A stretch of DNA of 24,186 nt, taken from positions 1-24,186 of the IMG/VR virus record IMGVR_UViG_3300047481_001570. One strand, written 5' to 3'. How positions within the stretch are numbered: the stretch's first letter is position 1; every line of letters begins with the position of its first letter. Positions 4,372-24,014 of the stretch are shown in pieces. The notes below the pieces were generated by a model. That model was not told the origin of the DNA. It saw only the letters and a program-made list of their open reading frames with translations, and made no database searches. This stretch comes from a virus. Position numbers and translations under genes: made by a program.

Positions 4372-5472
4372 ATGATAATTAGCTTTTACCCACAAAAAGA
4401 CGCAACAATATACGAAAAGTACGTAAACAAAAATACGGGACTTGACGCTATTCTTGATATAAGTAAGATATCAGAAGGTACTACACACTTTAATTCAAGA
4501 GCTTTAATTAAGTTTGACTTAACAACACTTGCACAATACAGCAGCTCTGGTCTAATAACATCGGCATCCGACGCAAAATATTACTTAAAATTATATGCAA
4601 CTGAACCAGAAGAGATACCGGTTGAATATACAATTGAGTGCTATGCTGTTAGTGGTAGTTGGAATATGGGTACTGGTAGATATGCAAATACACCAGAAAC
4701 AACAGATGGTACAACTTGGCGCTATAGAAATACCGTATCATCTACCGGACTAAGATGGGCAACATCATCTTATGCTATAGGAACAACAGGATCCTACGCA
4801 ATAACTCCAGGAGGGGGAAATTGGTATACGGGATCTGCTGGATCACAATCTTACAACTACGCTACATCAGACGCCGAAATAGATGTTACTAACATCGTAA
4901 AAAGCTGGCTATCATCAACAATACCAAATGAGGGATTCATTATAAAAAAGACAGATACAGCCGAGCAGAGCAGCAACACGTTCAAGAGTCTTAAATTTTT
5001 TAGTAGAGATAGTCATACAATATGGATACCTAGACTCGAAGCAAGATTTAATGATTACCAACACACAGCTAGCTATACAAATATTAATATTAACGACGAA
5101 AACTACGTAAATATATCAAACATTAAAGACACCTACAATGAAAAAAGTAGAGTTGTTTTTAGAGTTAATGCTAGGCCTAGATTCCCACAAATATCATTTC
5201 AAACATCCTCCCTCTTCCTAAATAATTACCTGATACCATCAGAATCACAATATAGTATTATTAAAGCAGATACGAGAGATGTGGTTGTTCCATTTGATAC
5301 TGGATTCACAAAAATATCAGCCGACGATGAAGGAAACTACTTTAAATATTATTTAGACGGATTACAACCAGAACAATACTATAAAATAATTATTAAAGTT
5401 GTTAATTCTGCAGTTGGATATGAAGAGATTTTTGACAATGATTGGATTTTTAAGGTAGTTAAACAACAATGA
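4372..5472 (+). CDS. DNRLRE/CBM96-like virion protein
   Basis: This 366-aa protein begins like DNRLRE-domain proteins, a beta-sandwich family now linked to carbohydrate binding (CBM96). A strand ending in KDATIYEKY (9-17) is followed by SRALIKFDLTTL (about 43-54), a YYLKLYATEPEE strand, and a late DVTNIVKSWL segment before a GFIIKK strand. 'FDL' followed by a 'V..W' helix is the usual DNRLRE pattern. Residues up to about 225 make this domain, with a Gly/Ser/Thr-rich loop near 100-165. The remaining 140 residues look like one or two further beta-sandwich domains and contain no recognised catalytic residues. It likely decorates the baseplate or acts as an adhesin base. It lies 1 base after gp6, and its TGA overlaps the next ATG (ATGA at 5469-5472). 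The domain call is moderate; the exact virion position is unknown. Confidence 0.7.
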   Translation: MIISFYPQKDATIYEKYVNKNTGLDAILDISKISEGTTHFNSRALIKFDLTTLAQYSSSGLITSASDAKYYLKLYATEPEEIPVEYTIECYAVSGSWNMGTGRYANTPETTDGTTWRYRNTVSSTGLRWATSSYAIGTTGSYAITPGGGNWYTGSAGSQSYNYATSDAEIDVTNIVKSWLSSTIPNEGFIIKKTDTAEQSSNTFKSLKFFSRDSHTIWIPRLEARFNDYQHTASYTNININDENYVNISNIKDTYNEKSRVVFRVNARPRFPQISFQTSSLFLNNYLIPSESQYSIIKADTRDVVVPFDTGFTKISADDEGNYFKYYLDGLQPEQYYKIIIKVVNSAVGYEEIFDNDWIFKVVKQQ

Positions 5473-7238
5473 GAGGTATAGATGGAAGTGTTATTATTAA
5501 TTTGGGAGATGGAAAGAGCACGAAGATAAACTCACCATTAACAAGTCTTGCAATCTCAACATTGAATGAGAATGAAACGACCTATAATCTATATCCATCT
5601 CGCTTAAATGAACCACCAATCATAACAGCCGGTATATATGAAGCCAGCATCCCACAAGTAAGATCTATACAGGCAGCAGAACCTGGTACCAGATTAATGT
5701 ATTTAAACGCCGATCAAACAATACGCATCGCGGTCGGTAAAACAATAACACTCAGAATACAAGCACAACAACCAGATACACTAAATGTAGAAAATGGTGT
5801 ACCTGAGATAATACCATCAACAGAAAAACTAACATATATTTGGAGAAAAGACAACATAGCTATAAACGCTACAGAAAATCGTCAAAATGATCAACCCGGA
5901 TATATCGTAATTGAAAATGCATTAATCATAATTAATCCAGATACAACATATAGTGGTACTTATACTTGTGATGTTAATAATGACATTGGTACAACAAGCT
6001 CGGAAGATGTTGAATTAGAAGTAATTGATGTACAAAATAATCCCTTTTTTAAATTAAATCATGTAACAAATCCCATAGGAATTAATAATCGTGAAGGCTG
6101 GATTGATTCCATAGGTAGTATACAAGTTAGAGGCTTCAGTAATAGTACATCAGATGATTTAAAGAGAGTAGAAAAAGCTGATGAATTTGCATATATAGCA
6201 GACATGCTCAATCCAAATCCTTTAGATTTATATGACACTTATGGAGACTTACTCAACTATGATCCATATTGGCTAGTAACTAATGGAAGTTACTTCACCA
6301 GAACAAAGATTAATTACTATATTAACGGCGAAGTCTTAACTGTATCAGCATACCAAGATATAGATTTAACAGAGGTGCAAGAATATATACAAGGTAGTAT
6401 TTATGGTGTAACAGGTGCTAAAGCCGTATTTAGTTGTTATATAGGAAATGCAGTTTCAAGATTTTTACATACCGCACCTTTTAGAACACCAAAACTCAGA
6501 CGTCCTAGACGTAATTATATATTTGAAGAACCGAGACTTAGTTTTGCAAACATGCAACTTGCGGGATTACCCGAAATAAATGAGACCGTTGAGGTATTAT
6601 TGGAGGAGTATGATAAGGAAACACAATTACCAAGTATTATACTTGACGAATCAACAAATAGAATACAAAAAGTACCTAGAATTAGTTTTCTTGATCCGTG
6701 GACTGTGGCAAAAAATAATGTAAGTGGTGGTGGTAGATTGCAAAATCTAAACGCGGTTATAAATAGGGTATACGATAACAATAATGACAATAAATACACA
6801 CTCGGACAATTCATTCAACACAATAAAGTTACAATCAATCAATTAAACTATAACACCACCAAAGTTAGAATTAGATTAAATTTCAGTATAAATGATATTA
6901 GATTAGTTGAGGAAGATCCATCTTACACAGAAGATACAGATGAGATATATGATATAATAAGCTGGCAGAAGCCATATGCATATAATCCTAATACAGGACA
7001 ATTAGTTAATGATGGTGAATTTATAGGCTATGAACAATCACAAACACCTAGAAATGCGAATAAACCAGTATCTAACTATATACCAAAGAATGGCATATCT
7101 CGAGGATTGGTAACGGGTATTAATTTTAATATTATGCCAATTTTAGATAATACAGTGATTAGGCAAAGTATACAAGTTACTGGAAGACGCAGTTCTTTAT
7201 TTTCAACTTTTACCACATTACCAAATCCAACAATATAG
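5469..7238 (+). CDS. Ig-like plus jelly-roll virion protein, copy A (589 aa)
   Basis: This is a probable surface-exposed tail or baseplate protein. Residues about 84-187 form an Ig-like domain: the core Trp is W125 (YIWRKD), and the F-strand hallmark is SGTYTCDV, with C167. The B-strand cysteine is absent, so no canonical disulphide forms. Residues about 190-340 look like a galactose-binding-like jelly roll, including NNREGWIDSIG and the motif IDLTEVQEYIQGSIYGV. The remaining 250 residues are beta-rich and unknown. Domain order and several motifs match the next gene, so the two are tandem paralogues. The start ATG overlaps the previous stop and no good ribosome-binding site is present, which suggests coupling. 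Ig-like domains in tailed phages are usually dispensable surface decorations that bind cell-surface sugars. Here binding is inference, and the ligand is unknown. Confidence 0.7.
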   Translation: MRGIDGSVIINLGDGKSTKINSPLTSLAISTLNENETTYNLYPSRLNEPPIITAGIYEASIPQVRSIQAAEPGTRLMYLNADQTIRIAVGKTITLRIQAQQPDTLNVENGVPEIIPSTEKLTYIWRKDNIAINATENRQNDQPGYIVIENALIIINPDTTYSGTYTCDVNNDIGTTSSEDVELEVIDVQNNPFFKLNHVTNPIGINNREGWIDSIGSIQVRGFSNSTSDDLKRVEKADEFAYIADMLNPNPLDLYDTYGDLLNYDPYWLVTNGSYFTRTKINYYINGEVLTVSAYQDIDLTEVQEYIQGSIYGVTGAKAVFSCYIGNAVSRFLHTAPFRTPKLRRPRRNYIFEEPRLSFANMQLAGLPEINETVEVLLEEYDKETQLPSIILDESTNRIQKVPRISFLDPWTVAKNNVSGGGRLQNLNAVINRVYDNNNDNKYTLGQFIQHNKVTINQLNYNTTKVRIRLNFSINDIRLVEEDPSYTEDTDEIYDIISWQKPYAYNPNTGQLVNDGEFIGYEQSQTPRNANKPVSNYIPKNGISRGLVTGINFNIMPILDNTVIRQSIQVTGRRSSLFSTFTTLPNPTI

Positions 7239-16793: not shown

Positions 16794-19502
16794 ATGGCAG
16801 GAGTTTTTAAAAGTTTAGATAAATCAGACGTACGTCTAACCCCGTTTCGAGCTTATAAACAGTGGAGTGATACTATATCATACTGTAACTATTCAGCTAG
16901 CTTAGGAACCTTAACAAACCCAACACTTATAACACTATCTAATAATGGAGGTGACCTCGTAATTGCAACTACTACAAACTACGCAATATTAGATCCAACC
17001 AACGAAAACTTAGAAAATCTATCTGGAACAACTGCATTCGCAGATACCCCAGTTTCTAACATATTTAAACATCCTACTGATCCAAATCAAGTAATAGTAT
17101 TAAGCAATAAGTTTGGAACGATAGATTTAACTACACTCACATATACCACACAAATAGCTTATCCTGGCACTGACACAGCTTATGATACGGTTGATAATGT
17201 GCATGTAATAGCATATGGAGCTGGATTAAATCAAGGAAGAATCGCAATATTAGACTCATCTTACAATAACCAAGATGATATAATTGAAACTATCAGGCTT
17301 AATAAGGTTAGTACTGATGCACATAACTTGGGAGATGATTCTAATTATTTTTTCTTAGCTGAAGACAAAACCGGTGGTATAAATAACGGTTCCTATCTCA
17401 TCGCATTTTCATATACAAGTCCTAATCTAACATTTAGTTATAAAATCCAAATAACTACAGAGACTGGAACACAAACACTACTTTATAATAGTAATCAACA
17501 AGGGCACTACGCTTTAACAAACAATAAATTATATTTCATAGATCTAGCAACGTATGTTGTAATTTTAGTAGCCACCGGAGTTACCCAGGTACTATCTGAT
17601 ACAAACGATAAAATACACGCAATATTACAAAATGGTGATATTTTGACAGATGTTGTAGTTAGTGGTGCTACTGTAATATATGATACAATTCAAGGATCTA
17701 GTTACGCCGGATCAAACACAGCAACTCAGGCAGTTATTAATTCAAATAATGAAATAGGAATTCTAGCAGGTAATGTTTTTTATATGTACAATGTAGATAC
17801 AAACACATTTAAAAATCCAAAATACATACCTGCAAGTATAGCTATAAATAAAATATATAGTGATAAAGATGTAACTACTAAAATATATGGCATAGGTTCA
17901 AACATACTAATGAATTTAACTTGTGAGCCTGATGATTTCACACTGTATAAAGCTGATTACTCTGGCCGCCCTTATTATTTAACAAATAATCCAATTGATA
18001 TTAACTTCGATCAAGGAAATGGACCTATAACGGGGGAGGAGATATTAACAGCTGAAGGTAAGTATGAAAGAGTTGTGCATAGATCTATAGATCATTTATT
18101 TTACAGAGATTACAAGACAAATACAAAGGCAACTTTTGGTGGAGCAAATGTTAATTATCAAAGAAGAACCTTAAATGATAGAGCTTATATATTATCACTC
18201 CCACAAAAAAAGTACGGAGAAGAAATACAACAAGGCTCAGTAATAATAGATATAAAGCGTAAAGGAACATACTACAACGGAGATTACACTTTGATAGATG
18301 ACATATATGGTAATCTCTATGTAAGTAATTCAATAGGAGGAACGCAAGTATCCTCTTCGAATGAAGTAGGTCGATTCCATTTTGACTTTGGTTATAAATA
18401 TTATAATAAAGGAGCCACAACAGTCACAGATGAGTACGCAGACGGTTACTGGCCGATGAAAGCTACCTATAAAAACATAATTTACGATAGAATATACAGT
18501 GATTTAGGAGCGTGTGCTTATTTTACTGCTAGCAATCAAAGTGTTCTAGTGATATCACCAGGTCCTGTACAGAAATTTAAGCAGAGCTATAATTTTGAAA
18601 ATAGTGATTTCAGTATATTCTTTACACTAAAACCACAGTATCCTACTGCAAATTACGAATTTGCAAATTTAGTCGCTAAGGAAGGTTCAGTTGAGGATAT
18701 TTTTATAGACATAAATGGTAATGTTGGCTCAACACCGGTTGGAACTAATTATCCATATAAAATAAAATTATGCGTATCTGGATCAAATCAAGGAAAACTC
18801 TACTTCAGCAGAAGTTCAGGATTTCAAACAACTGAAATAAGTACAGGGCCAGGAGATCAACTATCAGCAAATACCGTATATAATATAGCAGCTGTTAAAA
18901 GTGGAACTACTATGCAAATCTACATTAATGGATTTTTAAGAGCTACTGGTACAGATACAACAACAACCGGAACATACCAATCTAAGCAGTGTAGTAACGA
19001 ATCTAGCATCTTTGTGGGTGCAAACTATGCAACAAGTAGTGCCTATAACGGGTATTTGGATAACTTAAAATTTTATAACAAGGCTCTAACTTCAAATGAT
19101 TTATTATATCTAACAAACACCCGCGGAGTAGGAAATAGATATGTTGGAAATGTATTTTACAAGCATGGATTAGTGATAATTACAGACCAATTAGTAGATG
19201 AATCAGATGTATTAACTGCCACCTGCAGAGGTACACAAACAATATATGAAACAGAAGTATCTTGTACTATAGGTGGAGGAGAATTTAATCACTCATCAAA
19301 TCCAACACTACAAGAATATGAGCCTATATCAGATGAATTTATATTTAGACCATTTGTAAGTAGCTCTGACTTTAAGCCATATATAACAACTATAGGTTTG
19401 TATGATGATAGAGGTAATTTATTAGTTATAGGAAAACTAGGTCAACCAATCAAAGCCCCAAATAATACAGATACAACATTTATAGTTAGGTTTGATAGAT
19501 AA
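16794..19502 (+). CDS. Candidate receptor-binding or fibre protein: propeller-like, LamG-like and shared C-terminal module (902 aa)
   Basis: This is a large virion protein. Residues about 50-370 contain repeated four-strand-like blocks with 'V.V.S..G.IDL' patterns that suggest a beta-propeller; this call is tentative. Residues about 390-500 include HRSIDHLFYRDY and RAYILSLPQKKYGEEI, a segment I associate with marine phage virion proteins. Residues about 600-775 look like a LamG_3 / concanavalin-like lectin domain, with VYNIAAVKSGTTMQIYINGF and the closing YLDNLKFYNKALTSNDLLYL. The last 70 residues (about 830-902) match the C-terminal module of the 348-aa protein: NHSSNPTL, then YITTIGLYDDRGNLLVIGK. 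Together these suggest an exposed adhesin that binds a surface glycan. It begins after a terminator and a TATTTATA box, and the resolvase gene starts 2 bases after its stop. Confidence 0.72.
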   Translation: MAGVFKSLDKSDVRLTPFRAYKQWSDTISYCNYSASLGTLTNPTLITLSNNGGDLVIATTTNYAILDPTNENLENLSGTTAFADTPVSNIFKHPTDPNQVIVLSNKFGTIDLTTLTYTTQIAYPGTDTAYDTVDNVHVIAYGAGLNQGRIAILDSSYNNQDDIIETIRLNKVSTDAHNLGDDSNYFFLAEDKTGGINNGSYLIAFSYTSPNLTFSYKIQITTETGTQTLLYNSNQQGHYALTNNKLYFIDLATYVVILVATGVTQVLSDTNDKIHAILQNGDILTDVVVSGATVIYDTIQGSSYAGSNTATQAVINSNNEIGILAGNVFYMYNVDTNTFKNPKYIPASIAINKIYSDKDVTTKIYGIGSNILMNLTCEPDDFTLYKADYSGRPYYLTNNPIDINFDQGNGPITGEEILTAEGKYERVVHRSIDHLFYRDYKTNTKATFGGANVNYQRRTLNDRAYILSLPQKKYGEEIQQGSVIIDIKRKGTYYNGDYTLIDDIYGNLYVSNSIGGTQVSSSNEVGRFHFDFGYKYYNKGATTVTDEYADGYWPMKATYKNIIYDRIYSDLGACAYFTASNQSVLVISPGPVQKFKQSYNFENSDFSIFFTLKPQYPTANYEFANLVAKEGSVEDIFIDINGNVGSTPVGTNYPYKIKLCVSGSNQGKLYFSRSSGFQTTEISTGPGDQLSANTVYNIAAVKSGTTMQIYINGFLRATGTDTTTTGTYQSKQCSNESSIFVGANYATSSAYNGYLDNLKFYNKALTSNDLLYLTNTRGVGNRYVGNVFYKHGLVIITDQLVDESDVLTATCRGTQTIYETEVSCTIGGGEFNHSSNPTLQEYEPISDEFIFRPFVSSSDFKPYITTIGLYDDRGNLLVIGKLGQPIKAPNNTDTTFIVRFDR

Positions 19503-19504
19503 AT

Positions 19505-19918
19505 ATGGCAAAAAGAGGTTTCAATAAAAGATCTTCTGCAAAAGCAAGAGGATATCGAAGTGGTTTGGAGGAAGTGATCCAAGCTGAATTACAAGCTCGA
19601 GGTGTAAGTGGTGAGTACGAGCAACATAAAATTGAGTACATTAAACCAGCAACAACTCATAGCTACACACCAGATTTTAAATTACCTAATGGTATTTTTG
19701 TAGAAACTAAAGGTAGATTTGTTATCGAGGATCGTAAAAAACACATACTAATAAAAGATCAATTACCTAATCTTGATATCAGATTTGTTTTTCAAAACTC
19801 AAAAAATAAAATTCGAAAAGGGTCAAAAACAACATACGCTGATTGGTGTATAAAGCATGGATTTAAGTACGCAGACAAGACAGTTCCAACTGAGTGGCTA
19901 TTGGAAGTTGCAAAATAA
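19505..19918 (+). CDS. Holliday-junction resolvase, T7 endonuclease I family
   Basis: This 137-aa nuclease should cleave four-way and branched DNA, clearing junctions before packaging and aiding recombination. Similarity to T7 gp3 (149 aa) is strong over nearly the whole length: GYRSGLEE, a YE..K..Y segment, SYTPDFKLPNGIFVETKG (53-70), RKKHILIKDQ, and the late WCIKHGFKYADK. The T7 catalytic residues E20, D55, E65 and K67 correspond to E22, D57, E67 and K69, so it is likely active. The N-terminus is basic (KRGFNKRSS). T4 itself uses an unrelated resolvase, endonuclease VII (gp49), so this gene is a functional replacement from a different family. It follows the adhesin gene by 2 bases with no visible ribosome-binding site or terminator. 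A GATAAATA sequence (19498-19505) runs into the start codon. Confidence 0.95.
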   Translation: MAKRGFNKRSSAKARGYRSGLEEVIQAELQARGVSGEYEQHKIEYIKPATTHSYTPDFKLPNGIFVETKGRFVIEDRKKHILIKDQLPNLDIRFVFQNSKNKIRKGSKTTYADWCIKHGFKYADKTVPTEWLLEVAK

Positions 19919-19941: not shown

Positions 19942-20850
19942 ATGCAACAAGTAGTATCTATACTGGAATCGGCGCTCGGATCATGCACAACACACAAGAA
20001 AGGTGAACTAAGTTTTCACTGTCCTAAGTGCAATCACTATAAAAAGAAACTGCAAGTAAATTATCTAACACAAAGTTATCATTGTTGGGTATGTGGATTC
20101 AAGGGAAGAAGTATAGTACAGCTACTTAGAAAAGTAAATGCTGGACCATTTCTTATTACGAAAGCAAAAGAATTAGTTGGAGACAACACTACCACTAAAG
20201 GTAATAATACACAAACATTAACACTATCACTACCAACAGAGTTTCGACCACTACACATAAACTGGAATACACCTCACTATAAAAATGCTCTACATTACGT
20301 TTTTAATCACCGCAAACTAACACCAATAGAAATATTACGATATGGTATAGGTTATTGTGAAGAGGGTGATTATCATGGAATGATCATAGTTCCAAGCTAT
20401 GATGATAATAATCAGCTAAATTACTTTGTAGGTCGCACTTTTTATGATATAAATTTTAAACATAAAAATCCCGAAATGTCTCGAGACATTGTAGGATTTG
20501 AAAATTTAATAGATTGGGATCAACCAGTGACTTTAGTTGAAGGAGCTTTTGATGCTATAACAGCAAAACGTAATACAATACCTTTATTTGGAAAACGCAT
20601 ACTACCTAAGTTGCGTGGAAAGTTAATAGAAAGGCGTGTACCAAGAATAAATCTAGCGCTAGATGCAGATGCCTTAAAAGATGCAATTAATGAAGTGGAA
20701 TACTTCATAAATAATGGAATAGAGGTTAATGTAGTTAAGTTACCAGGTAAAGATCCTAATGAGATAGGATACACTAAAACGATAGAATCAATAAATAATT
20801 CAACTACAGTAGATTTGCTGGAGATGATAATGTTAAAAATGACAATATGA
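19942..20850 (+). CDS. DNA primase (zinc ribbon plus Toprim, gp61-like)
   Basis: This 302-aa protein makes RNA primers for lagging-strand synthesis and would work with a gp41/DnaB-type helicase that is not in this window. An N-terminal zinc ribbon has CPKC at 27-30 and CWVC at 48-51, the CHC2-like site for template recognition. A Toprim catalytic core follows: the acidic motif VEGAFDAI with E200, the DxD motif LALDADA with D241 and D243, and a KDPNEIG segment (270-276) typical of primases. Length is close to T4 gp61 (342 aa) and well short of bacterial DnaG (about 580 aa), because the helicase-binding C-domain is absent. The gap before it is 23 bases with no clear Shine-Dalgarno. Its stop overlaps the next start (ATGA, 20847-20850), so the fused nuclease-ATPase is probably translationally coupled to it. 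Confidence 0.92.
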   Translation: MQQVVSILESALGSCTTHKKGELSFHCPKCNHYKKKLQVNYLTQSYHCWVCGFKGRSIVQLLRKVNAGPFLITKAKELVGDNTTTKGNNTQTLTLSLPTEFRPLHINWNTPHYKNALHYVFNHRKLTPIEILRYGIGYCEEGDYHGMIIVPSYDDNNQLNYFVGRTFYDINFKHKNPEMSRDIVGFENLIDWDQPVTLVEGAFDAITAKRNTIPLFGKRILPKLRGKLIERRVPRINLALDADALKDAINEVEYFINNGIEVNVVKLPGKDPNEIGYTKTIESINNSTTVDLLEMIMLKMTI

Positions 20851-23800
20851 TAAATAAGATAGACTGCAATCTTCAAAAAATAGACTATATATACCACATC
20901 GCAGACATCCACATTCGCAATTGGAAAAGACACGCAGAATATAAACACATCTTCACAAAACTTAAAAAGGAATTAAAAAAACTACCAAAGAATTCCATAA
21001 TTACGGTAGGTGGAGACATTGTGCATGCAAAAACAGACATGAGTCCAGAGCTTATAGCTATGGTAGATTTGTTTTTCACAACACTAACAGATATTGCACC
21101 AACTATTGTGATTTGTGGTAATCACGATACAAATCTAAATAATAATCACAGATTAGATGCATTAACACCTATCATTGAACTTCTAAATAAAGAAAATTTA
21201 TACTATTTACGAGATAGTGGTGTATATCAATTGGGCAACGTCTCGATTACAGTAATGTCATTATTGGATAATCCAAGCAGATATACAAAAGCATTAGATG
21301 TTGATTTGCGAGTTGATAAAAAGATTGCAATGTATCATGGAACTATTCAAAACAGTGAAACAGATACAGGAATGATTCTAAAGCAGGGATTAGATGCTAA
21401 AATCTTTGATGGCTACGATTTAGTATTATTGGGTGATATTCACAAAAGACAAATACTAAAACAAAATCCATATACGTTTTACCCTGGAAGCCTCGTTCAA
21501 CAAAATTTCGGTGAAAGCTATGATGGGCATGGTTATTCTATAACTAACGTAAATACTCTAGAAACAACTTTCCATGATATACAAAACGATTATGGATACT
21601 TTACTCTAGATTTACAAGATGATATTGTACCTGATGATTTACCTATAGGTCCTAAAACAACTATACGAATACGTACAAAGAACATATCACCTGCGCAATT
21701 AAAACGTGTTACTGCAGATGTAAGAAAAAAATACAAATGCACCGATATAACAGCTGGCATAGTAGGCACTTCATCAGCAACAGACACAACACAGACGGAT
21801 ACATTTTTAGAAGGTGACATCCACAATATACAATATCAAAACACTCTAATCGCAGAGCAGTTAATATTACAGCAATTAGATGATGAACTTATCCACCAGG
21901 TAATAGCTATAAACACAGCACTAAACGCAGCATTAAATAACATTGATAGAGTTAGAAATGTAGTTTGGAAGCCAAAAAGATTTGAGTTTGATAATATGTT
22001 TTCTTATGGAGAAAATAATGTTATTGACTTTGAGCGAATGAATGGAACTTGTGGATTATTTGCACCTAATCATGCTGGCAAATCAGCAGTACTGGATGCG
22101 CTATGCTTTTGTTTATTTGATCACTCATTTAGAGCTTCAAAAGCTGAACAAGTATTAAATAATAAAAAAGATTCATTTAGATGTAAGTTTAATTTCATGT
22201 TAAATGGACATGATTATTTTATTGAAAAGAAAGCAACAAGATACGCAAAAGGACCACTAAAAGGTAAGCTCCGAGTTGATATTGATTTTTGGTATATTGA
22301 TGAGGATGGTGATATAAAATCACTAAATGGGGAACAAAGACGCGATACAGATAAAGCGATACAATCTTACGTAGGTACCTTTGATGATTTTATTTTAACA
22401 GCGTTATCACTTCAAAATAATAACTCAAACTTCATAGAAAAAACACAAGGAGAGCGTAAAGATTTACTAGCTAATTTTCTTGATCTTAAAATATTTGATC
22501 AATTAACAGAATTAGCAAATAAAGAAATAAGGTCATCGGTAGTATTGCTGGAAGAATATCAAAAACAGGACTTTGAAACACGATTAGCTGACGCAGAATC
22601 GATGAAAGAAAAGCTGGAAAAGCAATACGAAAACGCTAAGGAATATTATGAGTCAACAACAAAAGTTCAGATGGAAGATCTTAACGAAGAGATTATCGGA
22701 TGGACTGAAAAAATACAAGCAACATCCGCGGATAATCTCAACATTGATCAATTAAACGAAAGTAGAGCTAAATTACAAAAGCAGCTAGACGACCTGATAC
22801 CAGAAGTGGAAAGATATAACAAAGATTTACCAGTGAGAGAAAGAGCAAGAGATGAGAGTTTGGCTAGGATAAAGAGCTTTGACGAGAATCTAATTACCCA
22901 AAATGCAACTTTATACGAAAATAATAAGCGTGAATTGCAAAGTGTAGAAACTAAACTAGAAAGATTAAAAATAGTAGTTTCTAGCAAACTAGAAAAACTA
23001 GCTAGACTAGAGGAACATGAATATGATCCTAATTGCTCTTACTGCATAAATAATGTGTTTATAAAGGATGCTCAACAAACCAAGCAAGATCTTGAAAAGG
23101 ATAAAGTCTTAGTAACAGAGTTATTAAAAAATAGAACAGACTTAACTGATTTTCTAGTAGCTACAAAGCAGTATGAGGACACATTTCTAGAATTTAAAAC
23201 TTTAAAACAAAATCACTCACTACTGGAATCAGAATACAACTCAACTCAAAATAGATTAAACCAGTTATTAAACCAGGAACAGAGAATTACTTTTGATATC
23301 AAGGAGATTGACTCTAAAATTAGTTTATACGAACAAAATAAACAAACAATAGAATTAAATAAAAAGATACAATCGCAGATAGAAGCTCTCAAAAAGACAT
23401 TACAAGAGACAAAGCAAGAAGCCTCTGAATCCGAACACAAACTTCGTGATTTACATGGAAAAATAAAAGTATCTGAACAGATAATAAACGAGTGCAATAA
23501 TAGCCTAATTCACATGCAGGAATTAGTTGAAAAGGTAGCAGCCTATGAATACTATATAAAACTAGTATCCAGAGATGGTATACCGTTTAATTTAATCTCA
23601 AGAGCAATTCCATTTATTCAAAATTATGTAAACAACATACTTAGTCAAGTTGTTGACTTTACTATTAATTTAGAAACCGACGGTAAGAATATTAACGCTT
23701 TTATCATATACGATGGTAATAAATGGCCATTAGAATTAGCTTCTGGTATGGAAAAATTTATGTCTTCGCTAGCTATAAGAGTTGCATTAATCAAGATTAC

Positions 23801-24014
23801 AAATCTACCAAAACCAAACTTTATTGCAATTGATGAAGGTCTTGGAGTATTAGATTCAACTAATCTAAATTCTATGCACGCATTCTTTAATCAACTTAAA
23901 GAACTATTTACATTTAGTCTCGTAATTTCACATATTGACGTAGTTCGAGATATGGTTGATAATATTCTAAGTATTGATATAAAGGATGGTTTTAGTTCAA
24001 TAAGCTATTTATAA
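20847..24014 (+). CDS. gp47/gp46: Fused Mre11-Rad50 (gp47-gp46 / SbcD-SbcC) recombination protein
   Basis: One 1055-aa polypeptide carries both halves of the DNA end-processing complex, which T4 makes as separate gp47 (339 aa) and gp46 (560 aa). Residues 1 to about 370 form the Mre11-type nuclease: D20 and H22 (ADIH), GGD 55-57, GNHD 91-94, H164 (YHG) and GDIH 196-199, where cellular Mre11 has GHxH. From about 372 comes the Rad50-type ATPase: Walker A APNHAGKS (406-413), Q-loop Q523, coiled coils (about 555-725 and 735-900), zinc hook CSYC (730-733), signature ASGMEKF (965-971), Walker B with D996 and E997, and switch H1029. It should resect broken ends to feed recombination-dependent replication. 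The reading frame is unbroken across the junction. The short coiled coils match viral rather than cellular Rad50. Start ATG overlaps the primase stop. Confidence 0.93.
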   Translation: MINKIDCNLQKIDYIYHIADIHIRNWKRHAEYKHIFTKLKKELKKLPKNSIITVGGDIVHAKTDMSPELIAMVDLFFTTLTDIAPTIVICGNHDTNLNNNHRLDALTPIIELLNKENLYYLRDSGVYQLGNVSITVMSLLDNPSRYTKALDVDLRVDKKIAMYHGTIQNSETDTGMILKQGLDAKIFDGYDLVLLGDIHKRQILKQNPYTFYPGSLVQQNFGESYDGHGYSITNVNTLETTFHDIQNDYGYFTLDLQDDIVPDDLPIGPKTTIRIRTKNISPAQLKRVTADVRKKYKCTDITAGIVGTSSATDTTQTDTFLEGDIHNIQYQNTLIAEQLILQQLDDELIHQVIAINTALNAALNNIDRVRNVVWKPKRFEFDNMFSYGENNVIDFERMNGTCGLFAPNHAGKSAVLDALCFCLFDHSFRASKAEQVLNNKKDSFRCKFNFMLNGHDYFIEKKATRYAKGPLKGKLRVDIDFWYIDEDGDIKSLNGEQRRDTDKAIQSYVGTFDDFILTALSLQNNNSNFIEKTQGERKDLLANFLDLKIFDQLTELANKEIRSSVVLLEEYQKQDFETRLADAESMKEKLEKQYENAKEYYESTTKVQMEDLNEEIIGWTEKIQATSADNLNIDQLNESRAKLQKQLDDLIPEVERYNKDLPVRERARDESLARIKSFDENLITQNATLYENNKRELQSVETKLERLKIVVSSKLEKLARLEEHEYDPNCSYCINNVFIKDAQQTKQDLEKDKVLVTELLKNRTDLTDFLVATKQYEDTFLEFKTLKQNHSLLESEYNSTQNRLNQLLNQEQRITFDIKEIDSKISLYEQNKQTIELNKKIQSQIEALKKTLQETKQEASESEHKLRDLHGKIKVSEQIINECNNSLIHMQELVEKVAAYEYYIKLVSRDGIPFNLISRAIPFIQNYVNNILSQVVDFTINLETDGKNINAFIIYDGNKWPLELASGMEKFMSSLAIRVALIKITNLPKPNFIAIDEGLGVLDSTNLNSMHAFFNQLKELFTFSLVISHIDVVRDMVDNILSIDIKDGFSSISYL
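24006..24013 (+). promoter_or_regulatory. TATTTATA box before the last gene
   Basis: Exact TATTTATA covers the last codons and stop of the Mre11-Rad50 gene, ending 13 bases before the ATG at 24027. An AAAAGG run (24017-24022) lies between box and start and is a plausible ribosome-binding site. Together they suggest a new transcription unit begins here. Confidence 0.42.

What the first reader, a model, noticed from the sequence alone, without database searches (positions are those of the whole stretch)
20847..24014. Single-chain fusion of Mre11 and Rad50 homologues
Seen: one unbroken 1055-aa frame contains a complete set of Mre11 nuclease motifs (D20, H22, D57, N92, H93, H164, H199) followed by Rad50 Walker A, zinc hook, signature and Walker B. 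Known: in T4 (gp47/gp46), bacteria (SbcD/SbcC) and archaea/eukaryotes these are two proteins that assemble as M2R2. Inference: the fusion fixes 1:1 stoichiometry and puts the nuclease at the N-terminus of the ATPase. The roughly 100 residues about 270-370, which hold the capping/helical region that normally binds the Rad50 coiled-coil base, would act as an intramolecular tether. I do not recall a characterised phage example.
Basis: partly seen in the sequence, partly recalled or inferred. Interest (0 to 1): 0.72.

Follow-up and report, generated by a model that had tools for sequence, protein, structure and literature searches.

The report
Phage DNA-break nuclease in one chain
This phage gene makes the two halves of a widespread DNA-break repair machine (the nuclease Mre11 and the ATPase Rad50) as a single protein; that kind of fusion has been known from sequence since 2011, but here it proves to be common in aquatic phages, and one related group has cut the fused gene again at a different place.

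Summary
Window 20847-24014 (+) is one 1055-aa frame with a phosphoesterase core, cap, helix-loop-helix, a ~10-residue linker and a complete Rad50 (AlphaFold pLDDT 82). It is not a sequencing artefact: the junction is in one open frame in 160 of 160 related loci that hold it, with purifying selection through it. In 12 of 14 large contigs or records it is the only strong SbcC/SbcD-like match. One detail is corrected: the metal ligand equivalent to Pyrococcus His206 is Asp197 (51/51), as reported for Mimivirus R555.

The kind is known. Yoshida et al. 2011 (PMC3175470) described such fusions in Mimivirus, bacteria, plasmids, eukaryotes and a Bacillus phage, and inferred that abundant metagenomic homologues sit in phages beside primases and T7-type endonucleases. 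This window has exactly that neighbourhood; a primase lies directly upstream in 151 of 155 loci.

Not found in the papers searched: a related phage group encodes the nuclease core alone and puts cap + helix-loop-helix + Rad50 on the second protein. Tree, synteny and anatomy favour fusion first, then fission at a new breakpoint. Function (homodimeric ATP-gated end resection) is inferred.

The parts
20847..24014 (+). Fused Mre11-Rad50 (SbcD-SbcC) gene, 1055 aa; its ATG overlaps the primase stop (ATGA)
20847..21581 (+). Mre11-type phosphoesterase core, residues 1-245 (D20 H22 D57 N92 H93 H164 D197 H199)
   Evidence: Pfam; AlphaFold; conservation
21594..21761 (+). Cap-like region, residues about 250-305
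   Evidence: AlphaFold secondary structure; profile match to the N-terminus of split Rad50s
21762..21827 (+). Disordered loop, residues 306-327 (pLDDT below 50 at 308-318)
21828..21932 (+). Helix-loop-helix (Rad50-binding domain), residues 328-362
   Evidence: (same topology at the N-terminus of split Rad50s)
21933..21962 (+). Linker joining the Mre11 and Rad50 parts, residues 363-372
21963..22487 (+). Rad50 N-lobe of the ATPase head, residues 373-547; Walker A (APNHAGKS) at 22062-22085
22488..23567 (+). Antiparallel coiled coil (548-721 and 737-907) with CxxC zinc-hook motif C730/C733 at 23034-23045
23580..24011 (+). Rad50 C-lobe, residues 912-1055: signature SGME 23742-23753, Walker B 23820-23837, switch His1029 23931-23933
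19942..20850 (+). Phage DNA primase, directly upstream in 151 of 155 fused loci with room
19505..19918 (+). T7 gp3-type endonuclease I (Holliday junction resolvase)
   Evidence: Pfam E 4.9e-61; upstream in 105 of 141 loci

Best explanation
The gene encodes a single-chain Mre11-Rad50 nuclease of the R555-type fusion kind. Shown: one frame, all domains in canonical order, conserved active-site residues, and the only strong SbcC/SbcD-like match in most large relatives. Inferred: two chains form a homodimer equivalent to M2R2. The nuclease domains pair, and the two Rad50 heads close on ATP and open on hydrolysis. Each chain's helix-loop-helix binds the coiled-coil base of (most simply) its own Rad50 part through the short linker. 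The coiled coils with the CxxC hook hold DNA ends or sister molecules. ATP-gated opening lets the Mn-dependent nuclease trim or nick blocked ends and hairpins, giving 3' ends for the phage RecA and recombination-dependent replication, with endonuclease I resolving junctions, much as gp46/gp47 do in T4. The family's ancestor was probably already fused; one later lineage re-split the gene between nuclease core and cap.
For: Domains and motifs. AlphaFold gives core-cap-loop-HLH-linker-Rad50 in order. Best full-length structural matches are giant-virus DNA repair exonucleases, then Tenacibaculum phage pT24/PTm1 proteins; PDB matches are Mre11, Rad50 and SMC heads. One frame across the junction in 160/160 loci; many synonymous and few amino-acid changes across it. 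Only strong SbcC/SbcD-like match in 12 of 14 large contigs or records. RecA homologue in 6 of 7 records tested. Primase 151/155 and endonuclease I 105/141 upstream. Fission: split Rad50 ORFs carry the cap-HLH; tree and AU test p = 0.0155; a primase is also upstream of split loci.
Against: No biochemical test of this protein or of any R555-type fusion was found. The nuclease carries Asp in place of one metal-binding His, so activity is not certain. Only a monomer could be modelled (pTM 0.49), so the dimer and the cis or trans binding of the HLH are inferred. The window is a 24-kb fragment, so other genes of this phage are unseen. The 735-kb record LR756501 also carries a separate SbcC and an SbcD-like gene, so the fusion may have another job there. 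In the tree, L003 and PTm1 are long branches and the outgroup is distant.
Confidence: 0.85

Rival explanations
1. The fused frame is an assembly or sequencing artefact joining two genes.
For: Single 24-kb metagenomic record; frameshifted copies exist elsewhere (L050, L054, L075), though none at the junction.
Against: 160/160 loci cross the junction in one frame, also in an isolated phage, Mel-JY01 PP395634; selection on the frame.
Confidence: 0.01
2. The gene is translated as a fusion but works as two subunits after proteolysis or internal initiation near residue 373-384.
For: M384 is Met in 48 of 51 sequences; a related clade encodes two proteins.
Against: M384 lies inside the first Rad50 strand and the 20 bases before it (AAAGATTTGAGTTTGATAAT) show no clear ribosome-binding site. 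In the split clade the break is about 110 residues further upstream, not here.
Confidence: 0.07
3. The main role is not recombination but breakdown of host DNA or processing of host-defence structures.
For: T4 gp46/gp47 are annotated as needed both for recombination and for host-DNA degradation.
Against: Synteny with primase and Holliday junction resolvase, and RecA in the larger relatives, point to replication and recombination. The two roles do not exclude each other.
Confidence: 0.25
4. The split group descends from separate genes with the cap already on Rad50, and the fused forms arose twice by joining them (two fusions, no fission).
For: Also needs only two changes on the tree; L003 and PTm1 are long branches.
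Against: In characterised Mre11-Rad50 the cap and Rad50-binding domain are on Mre11 (PMC10418313), so this needs an extra domain transfer; all fused forms share the same domain order.
Confidence: 0.25

Closest known systems
Mimivirus R555 and the Mre11/Rad50 fusion proteins of Yoshida et al. 2011 (PMC3175470)
   Same: Same N-to-C order, cap and HLH region retained, short linker, Asp in place of the Pyrococcus His206 ligand; metagenomic homologues had the same phage neighbours (primase, T7-type endonuclease). Top structural matches are giant-virus proteins of this type.
   Different: 1055 aa against 1351 aa (R555 has a longer coiled coil according to the paper); in a tailed phage rather than a giant virus. 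R555 itself was not among the sequences available to align.
Tenacibaculum phage PTm1/pT24 'DNA repair exonuclease' (AP019524, 1318 aa; phrog_35725)
   Same: Fused nuclease-Rad50 in an isolated phage.
   Different: Distant in sequence, longer, different phage and gene neighbourhood.
T4 gp47/gp46 and SPO1 gp21.3/gp21.9 (SbcD/SbcC)
   Same: Same domains; same nuclease-then-ATPase gene order; a primase lies nearby in SPO1 and SIOphi.
   Different: Two proteins; about 23% identity for SPO1; His rather than Asp at that ligand in T4 and SPO1.
E. coli SbcCD and cellular Mre11-Rad50
   Same: Catalytic and ATPase folds.
   Different: Two chains; E. coli SbcC is 1048 aa alone against about 680 aa for the Rad50 part here.

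Membership tests
Mre11/Rad50 (SbcCD) complex | Calcineurin-like phosphoesterase with Mre11 metal-ligand motifs | tested here: met
   one ligand is Asp197 in place of His
Mre11/Rad50 (SbcCD) complex | ABC-type head with Walker A, Q-loop, signature, Walker B and switch His, split by a long coiled coil | tested here: met
Mre11/Rad50 (SbcCD) complex | CxxC zinc hook at the tip of the coiled coil | tested here: met
   C730 51/51, C733 50/51; lies between the two coiled-coil arms
Mre11/Rad50 (SbcCD) complex | Cap and helix-loop-helix Rad50-binding domain | tested here: met
   Strand-helix-strand at 272-305 and two helices at 328-362
Mre11/Rad50 (SbcCD) complex | ATP-stimulated, Mn-dependent nuclease; M2R2 assembly | not testable with these tools
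R555-type Mre11/Rad50 fusion | Both parts in one open frame, nuclease first | tested here: met
R555-type Mre11/Rad50 fusion | Outside canonical SbcCD clades | tested here: inconclusive
   Groups with other fused phage proteins apart from four canonical phage pairs; R555 and cellular sequences not in the tree; structural similarity only
R555-type Mre11/Rad50 fusion | Asp at the His206-equivalent ligand, as in R555 | tested here: met
   D197 51/51; R555 Asp242 as reported in PMC3175470

The most novel reading that the evidence does not exclude
In aquatic phages the ancestral fused Mre11-Rad50 gene was later broken again at a new point, so that one lineage runs a nuclease core alone with a Rad50 that carries the cap and Rad50-binding helices on its own chain, and with a small conserved third protein encoded between them: a re-partitioned Mre11-Rad50 machine.
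Probability: 0.6. Interest if true: 0.55.

Novelty: new member of a known kind. Interest (0 to 1): 0.42.

Why it matters
It gives long-contig support to the 2011 inference, made from short metagenomic sequences, that the many R555-like genes in water samples belong to phages. A single-chain Mre11-Rad50 with a fairly short coiled coil is a practical object for structural work, since stoichiometry is fixed. The re-split relatives are a natural test of which Mre11-Rad50 contacts must be covalent: there the cap and Rad50-binding helices sit on Rad50, and the nuclease core has to dock without them.

Tried and rejected
Immutovirus phages have a similar primase, but the next genes are not Mre11/Rad50. 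Bacillus phage SP-15 primase neighbourhood: no SbcCD beside it. Group I intron in LR756508 and L053: no Rfam match, so a homing-endonuclease insertion is the better guess. Plasmid search: only the Rad50 half at about 22%. Internal re-initiation at M384: no support. The best-80 lists favour full-length matches, so a nuclease-half-only scan was run to look for unfused relatives; that is how the split group was found. The tree of the nuclease half alone is poorly resolved.
Full report
What is there. Window 20847-24014 (+) is a single 1055-aa frame. It starts with an ATG that overlaps the stop of an upstream primase gene. Pfam finds Metallophos (15-200) and SMC_N/AAA_23 (378-617); PHROGs finds an SbcD-like part (15-325) and an SbcC-like part (375-1054); sequence comparison with solved structures finds SbcC, SbcD, Mre11 and Rad50. 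An AlphaFold model from 51 sequences (mean pLDDT 82, pTM 0.49) gives the order phosphoesterase core, cap, disordered loop (306-327), helix-loop-helix (328-341 and 346-362), a linker of about ten residues, Rad50 N-lobe from 373, coiled coil with hook at C730/C733, and C-lobe to the end.

Motifs. D20, D57, N92, H93, H164 and H199 are invariant in 51 aligned sequences and H22 is His in 49. The residue at the place of P. furiosus His206 is Asp197 in all 51. Yoshida et al. report the same change in Mimivirus R555 (Asp242; PMC3175470). In T4 gp47 and SPO1 gp21.3 that residue is His. In Rad50 the first Walker A glycine is Ala in 48 of 51, and the signature is SGME rather than SGGE.

Is it real. Relatives came from a phage collection, IMG/VR and MAG contigs. 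Of 164 loci, 160 hold the junction and all 160 cross it in one frame; three others are cut by the contig end and one is the unfused L094. An isolated phage, Microcystis phage Mel-JY01, has the fused gene. Comparison with two close relatives shows many synonymous and fewer amino-acid changes in every part, junction included. The best-80 lists favour full-length matches, so '160 of 160' describes the fused group and not the whole superfamily.

Only copy. SbcC and SbcD profiles were run over 14 large contigs or records. In 12 of them (four contigs of 122-166 kb, Mel-JY01 at 190 kb, seven contigs of 114-274 kb) the fused frame is the only strong match; weak extra hits (E 7e-6 to 3e-4) occur in G002 and Mel-JY01. 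The 735-kb record LR756501 is different: besides the fused gene it has a strong separate SbcC match and an SbcD-like match. In LR756508 (484 kb) the SbcD profile missed the interrupted gene. A RecA homologue is present in six of seven records tested.

Neighbourhood. The window carries a T7 gp3-type endonuclease I and a primase just upstream. Among fused loci with room, a primase lies directly upstream in 151 of 155 and an endonuclease I upstream in 105 of 141. Yoshida et al. noted just these neighbours, phage primases and gp3-type endonucleases, on marine scaffolds with R555 homologues, and argued that these belonged to phages (PMC3175470). The rest of the window is structural: a gp25-like baseplate wedge, other baseplate proteins and a LamG-domain protein, so this is probably a contractile-tailed phage (inference).

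Closest known. Foldseek against predicted viral structures puts Tupanvirus, Harvfovirus, Yasminevirus, Terrestrivirus and Catovirus proteins first, over nearly their full length, followed among others by Tenacibaculum phage pT24 and PTm1 proteins. PTm1 is an isolated phage whose gene is a 1318-aa fusion. The kind is therefore known, including in phages, although I found no biochemical study (the paper library is open-access only).

The split group. A scan with the nuclease half only found 38 viral contigs (some near-identical) in which the nuclease core is a separate ORF of about 260-275 aa that ends near where the fused protein's cap begins (L177 and L094 are more distant and have no Rad50 hit). 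In 34 of the 38 a Rad50-like ORF lies downstream. In the 30 loci where its start and Walker A can both be read, Walker A lies 146-172 residues from the start, against about 30-40 in T4 gp46 and relatives. That extension aligns with the fused protein's residues 267-364 (profile comparison probability 94%, E 1.6e-7, with null controls). It is predicted to fold in the same order: strand 21-27, helix 34-47, strand 53-59, disordered 61-73, helices 82-95 and 102-122, then the Rad50 strand at 128. In the fused protein the matching elements are 272-277, 282-296, 301-305, 308-318, 328-341, 346-362 and 373. A primase homologue is upstream in 34 of 38 split loci, and a small ORF of unknown family follows the nuclease in 37 of 38.

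Direction of change. In a tree of the concatenated nuclease and Rad50 parts, rooted on the T4, S-SKS1, SPO1 and SIOphi pairs, the split proteins form one clade (100/99) inside the family and group with the fused L003 and PTm1 proteins (97/97) rather than lying outside all fused ones. Holding all fused proteins as one clade is rejected at p = 0.0155. In characterised Mre11-Rad50 complexes the cap and the Rad50-binding domain are part of Mre11 (PMC10418313), so a cap on Rad50 is what a second break of a fused gene would leave. I read this as fusion first and fission later, at about 60% confidence, because L003 and PTm1 are long branches and the outgroup is distant. Two separate fusions are the main alternative.

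Mechanism. By homology, two chains would make the equivalent of M2R2: paired nuclease domains, ATP-dependent closure of two Rad50 heads, HLH bound to the coiled-coil base, and hook-mediated tethering. The ~10-residue linker agrees with the 9-12 residues that Yoshida et al. estimated from the 28 A gap in the Thermotoga complex, which makes binding in cis possible; trans binding is not excluded. The likely role is end processing for recombination-dependent replication, as for T4 gp46/gp47, whose annotation also names host-DNA degradation. All of this paragraph is inference.

Verdict. The finding is correct and the interpretation mostly sound, but the architecture is a known kind. The wider survey adds phage prevalence, synteny that matches the 2011 inference, and a re-split clade with a changed domain partition.

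Noticed in passing
L002:5540-6596 (LR756508, 484 kb) and L053:3100-3193: In LR756508 the fused gene is interrupted right after the GDIHKRQ metal-ligand motif by about 1 kb with an HNH-type endonuclease ORF; L053 has a ~90-bp insert at the same place, and both upstream pieces end in a similar tail (YLNSGWKL / YLQQGWEK). It looks like a homing-endonuclease site and its scar; no Rfam intron match.
   Followed up: partly
L189:4785-5285, L191:969-1256, L199:4791-5219 and others: Small ORF after the nuclease core in 37 of 38 split loci: a conserved ~45-aa N-terminus (YC.LN.I...GF...KYG), often low-complexity VEKEVIKEVPVE repeats and a tail like LYDE. No Pfam or PHROG family; possibly a third partner.
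   Followed up: partly
LR756501 (735 kb): 278540-282079, 670999-672753, 451881-452144: This megaphage record has the fused protein plus a separate strong SbcC match and an SbcD-like match.
   Followed up: no
L087, L088, L090, L091, L093: MAG contigs labelled Nitrosopelagicus, Chloroflexi, Pelagibacteraceae, Flavobacteriales and Gammaproteobacteria carry relatives of the fused gene; where flanks were listed (L087, L088, L091, L093) an ORF of primase size lies directly upstream, so they are probably phage contigs binned with cells.
   Followed up: no
L097:2130-4869 (Vibrio phage D254): Separate SbcD and SbcC genes overlap by 26 bases, the kind of arrangement from which a fusion could form; its SbcD also has the GD.H form of the ligand motif.
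   Followed up: no
window 16794-19502 and 5469-7238: Large structural proteins with a LamG-type lectin domain and weak Ig-like domain matches, probably tail fibre or host-contact proteins.
   Followed up: no
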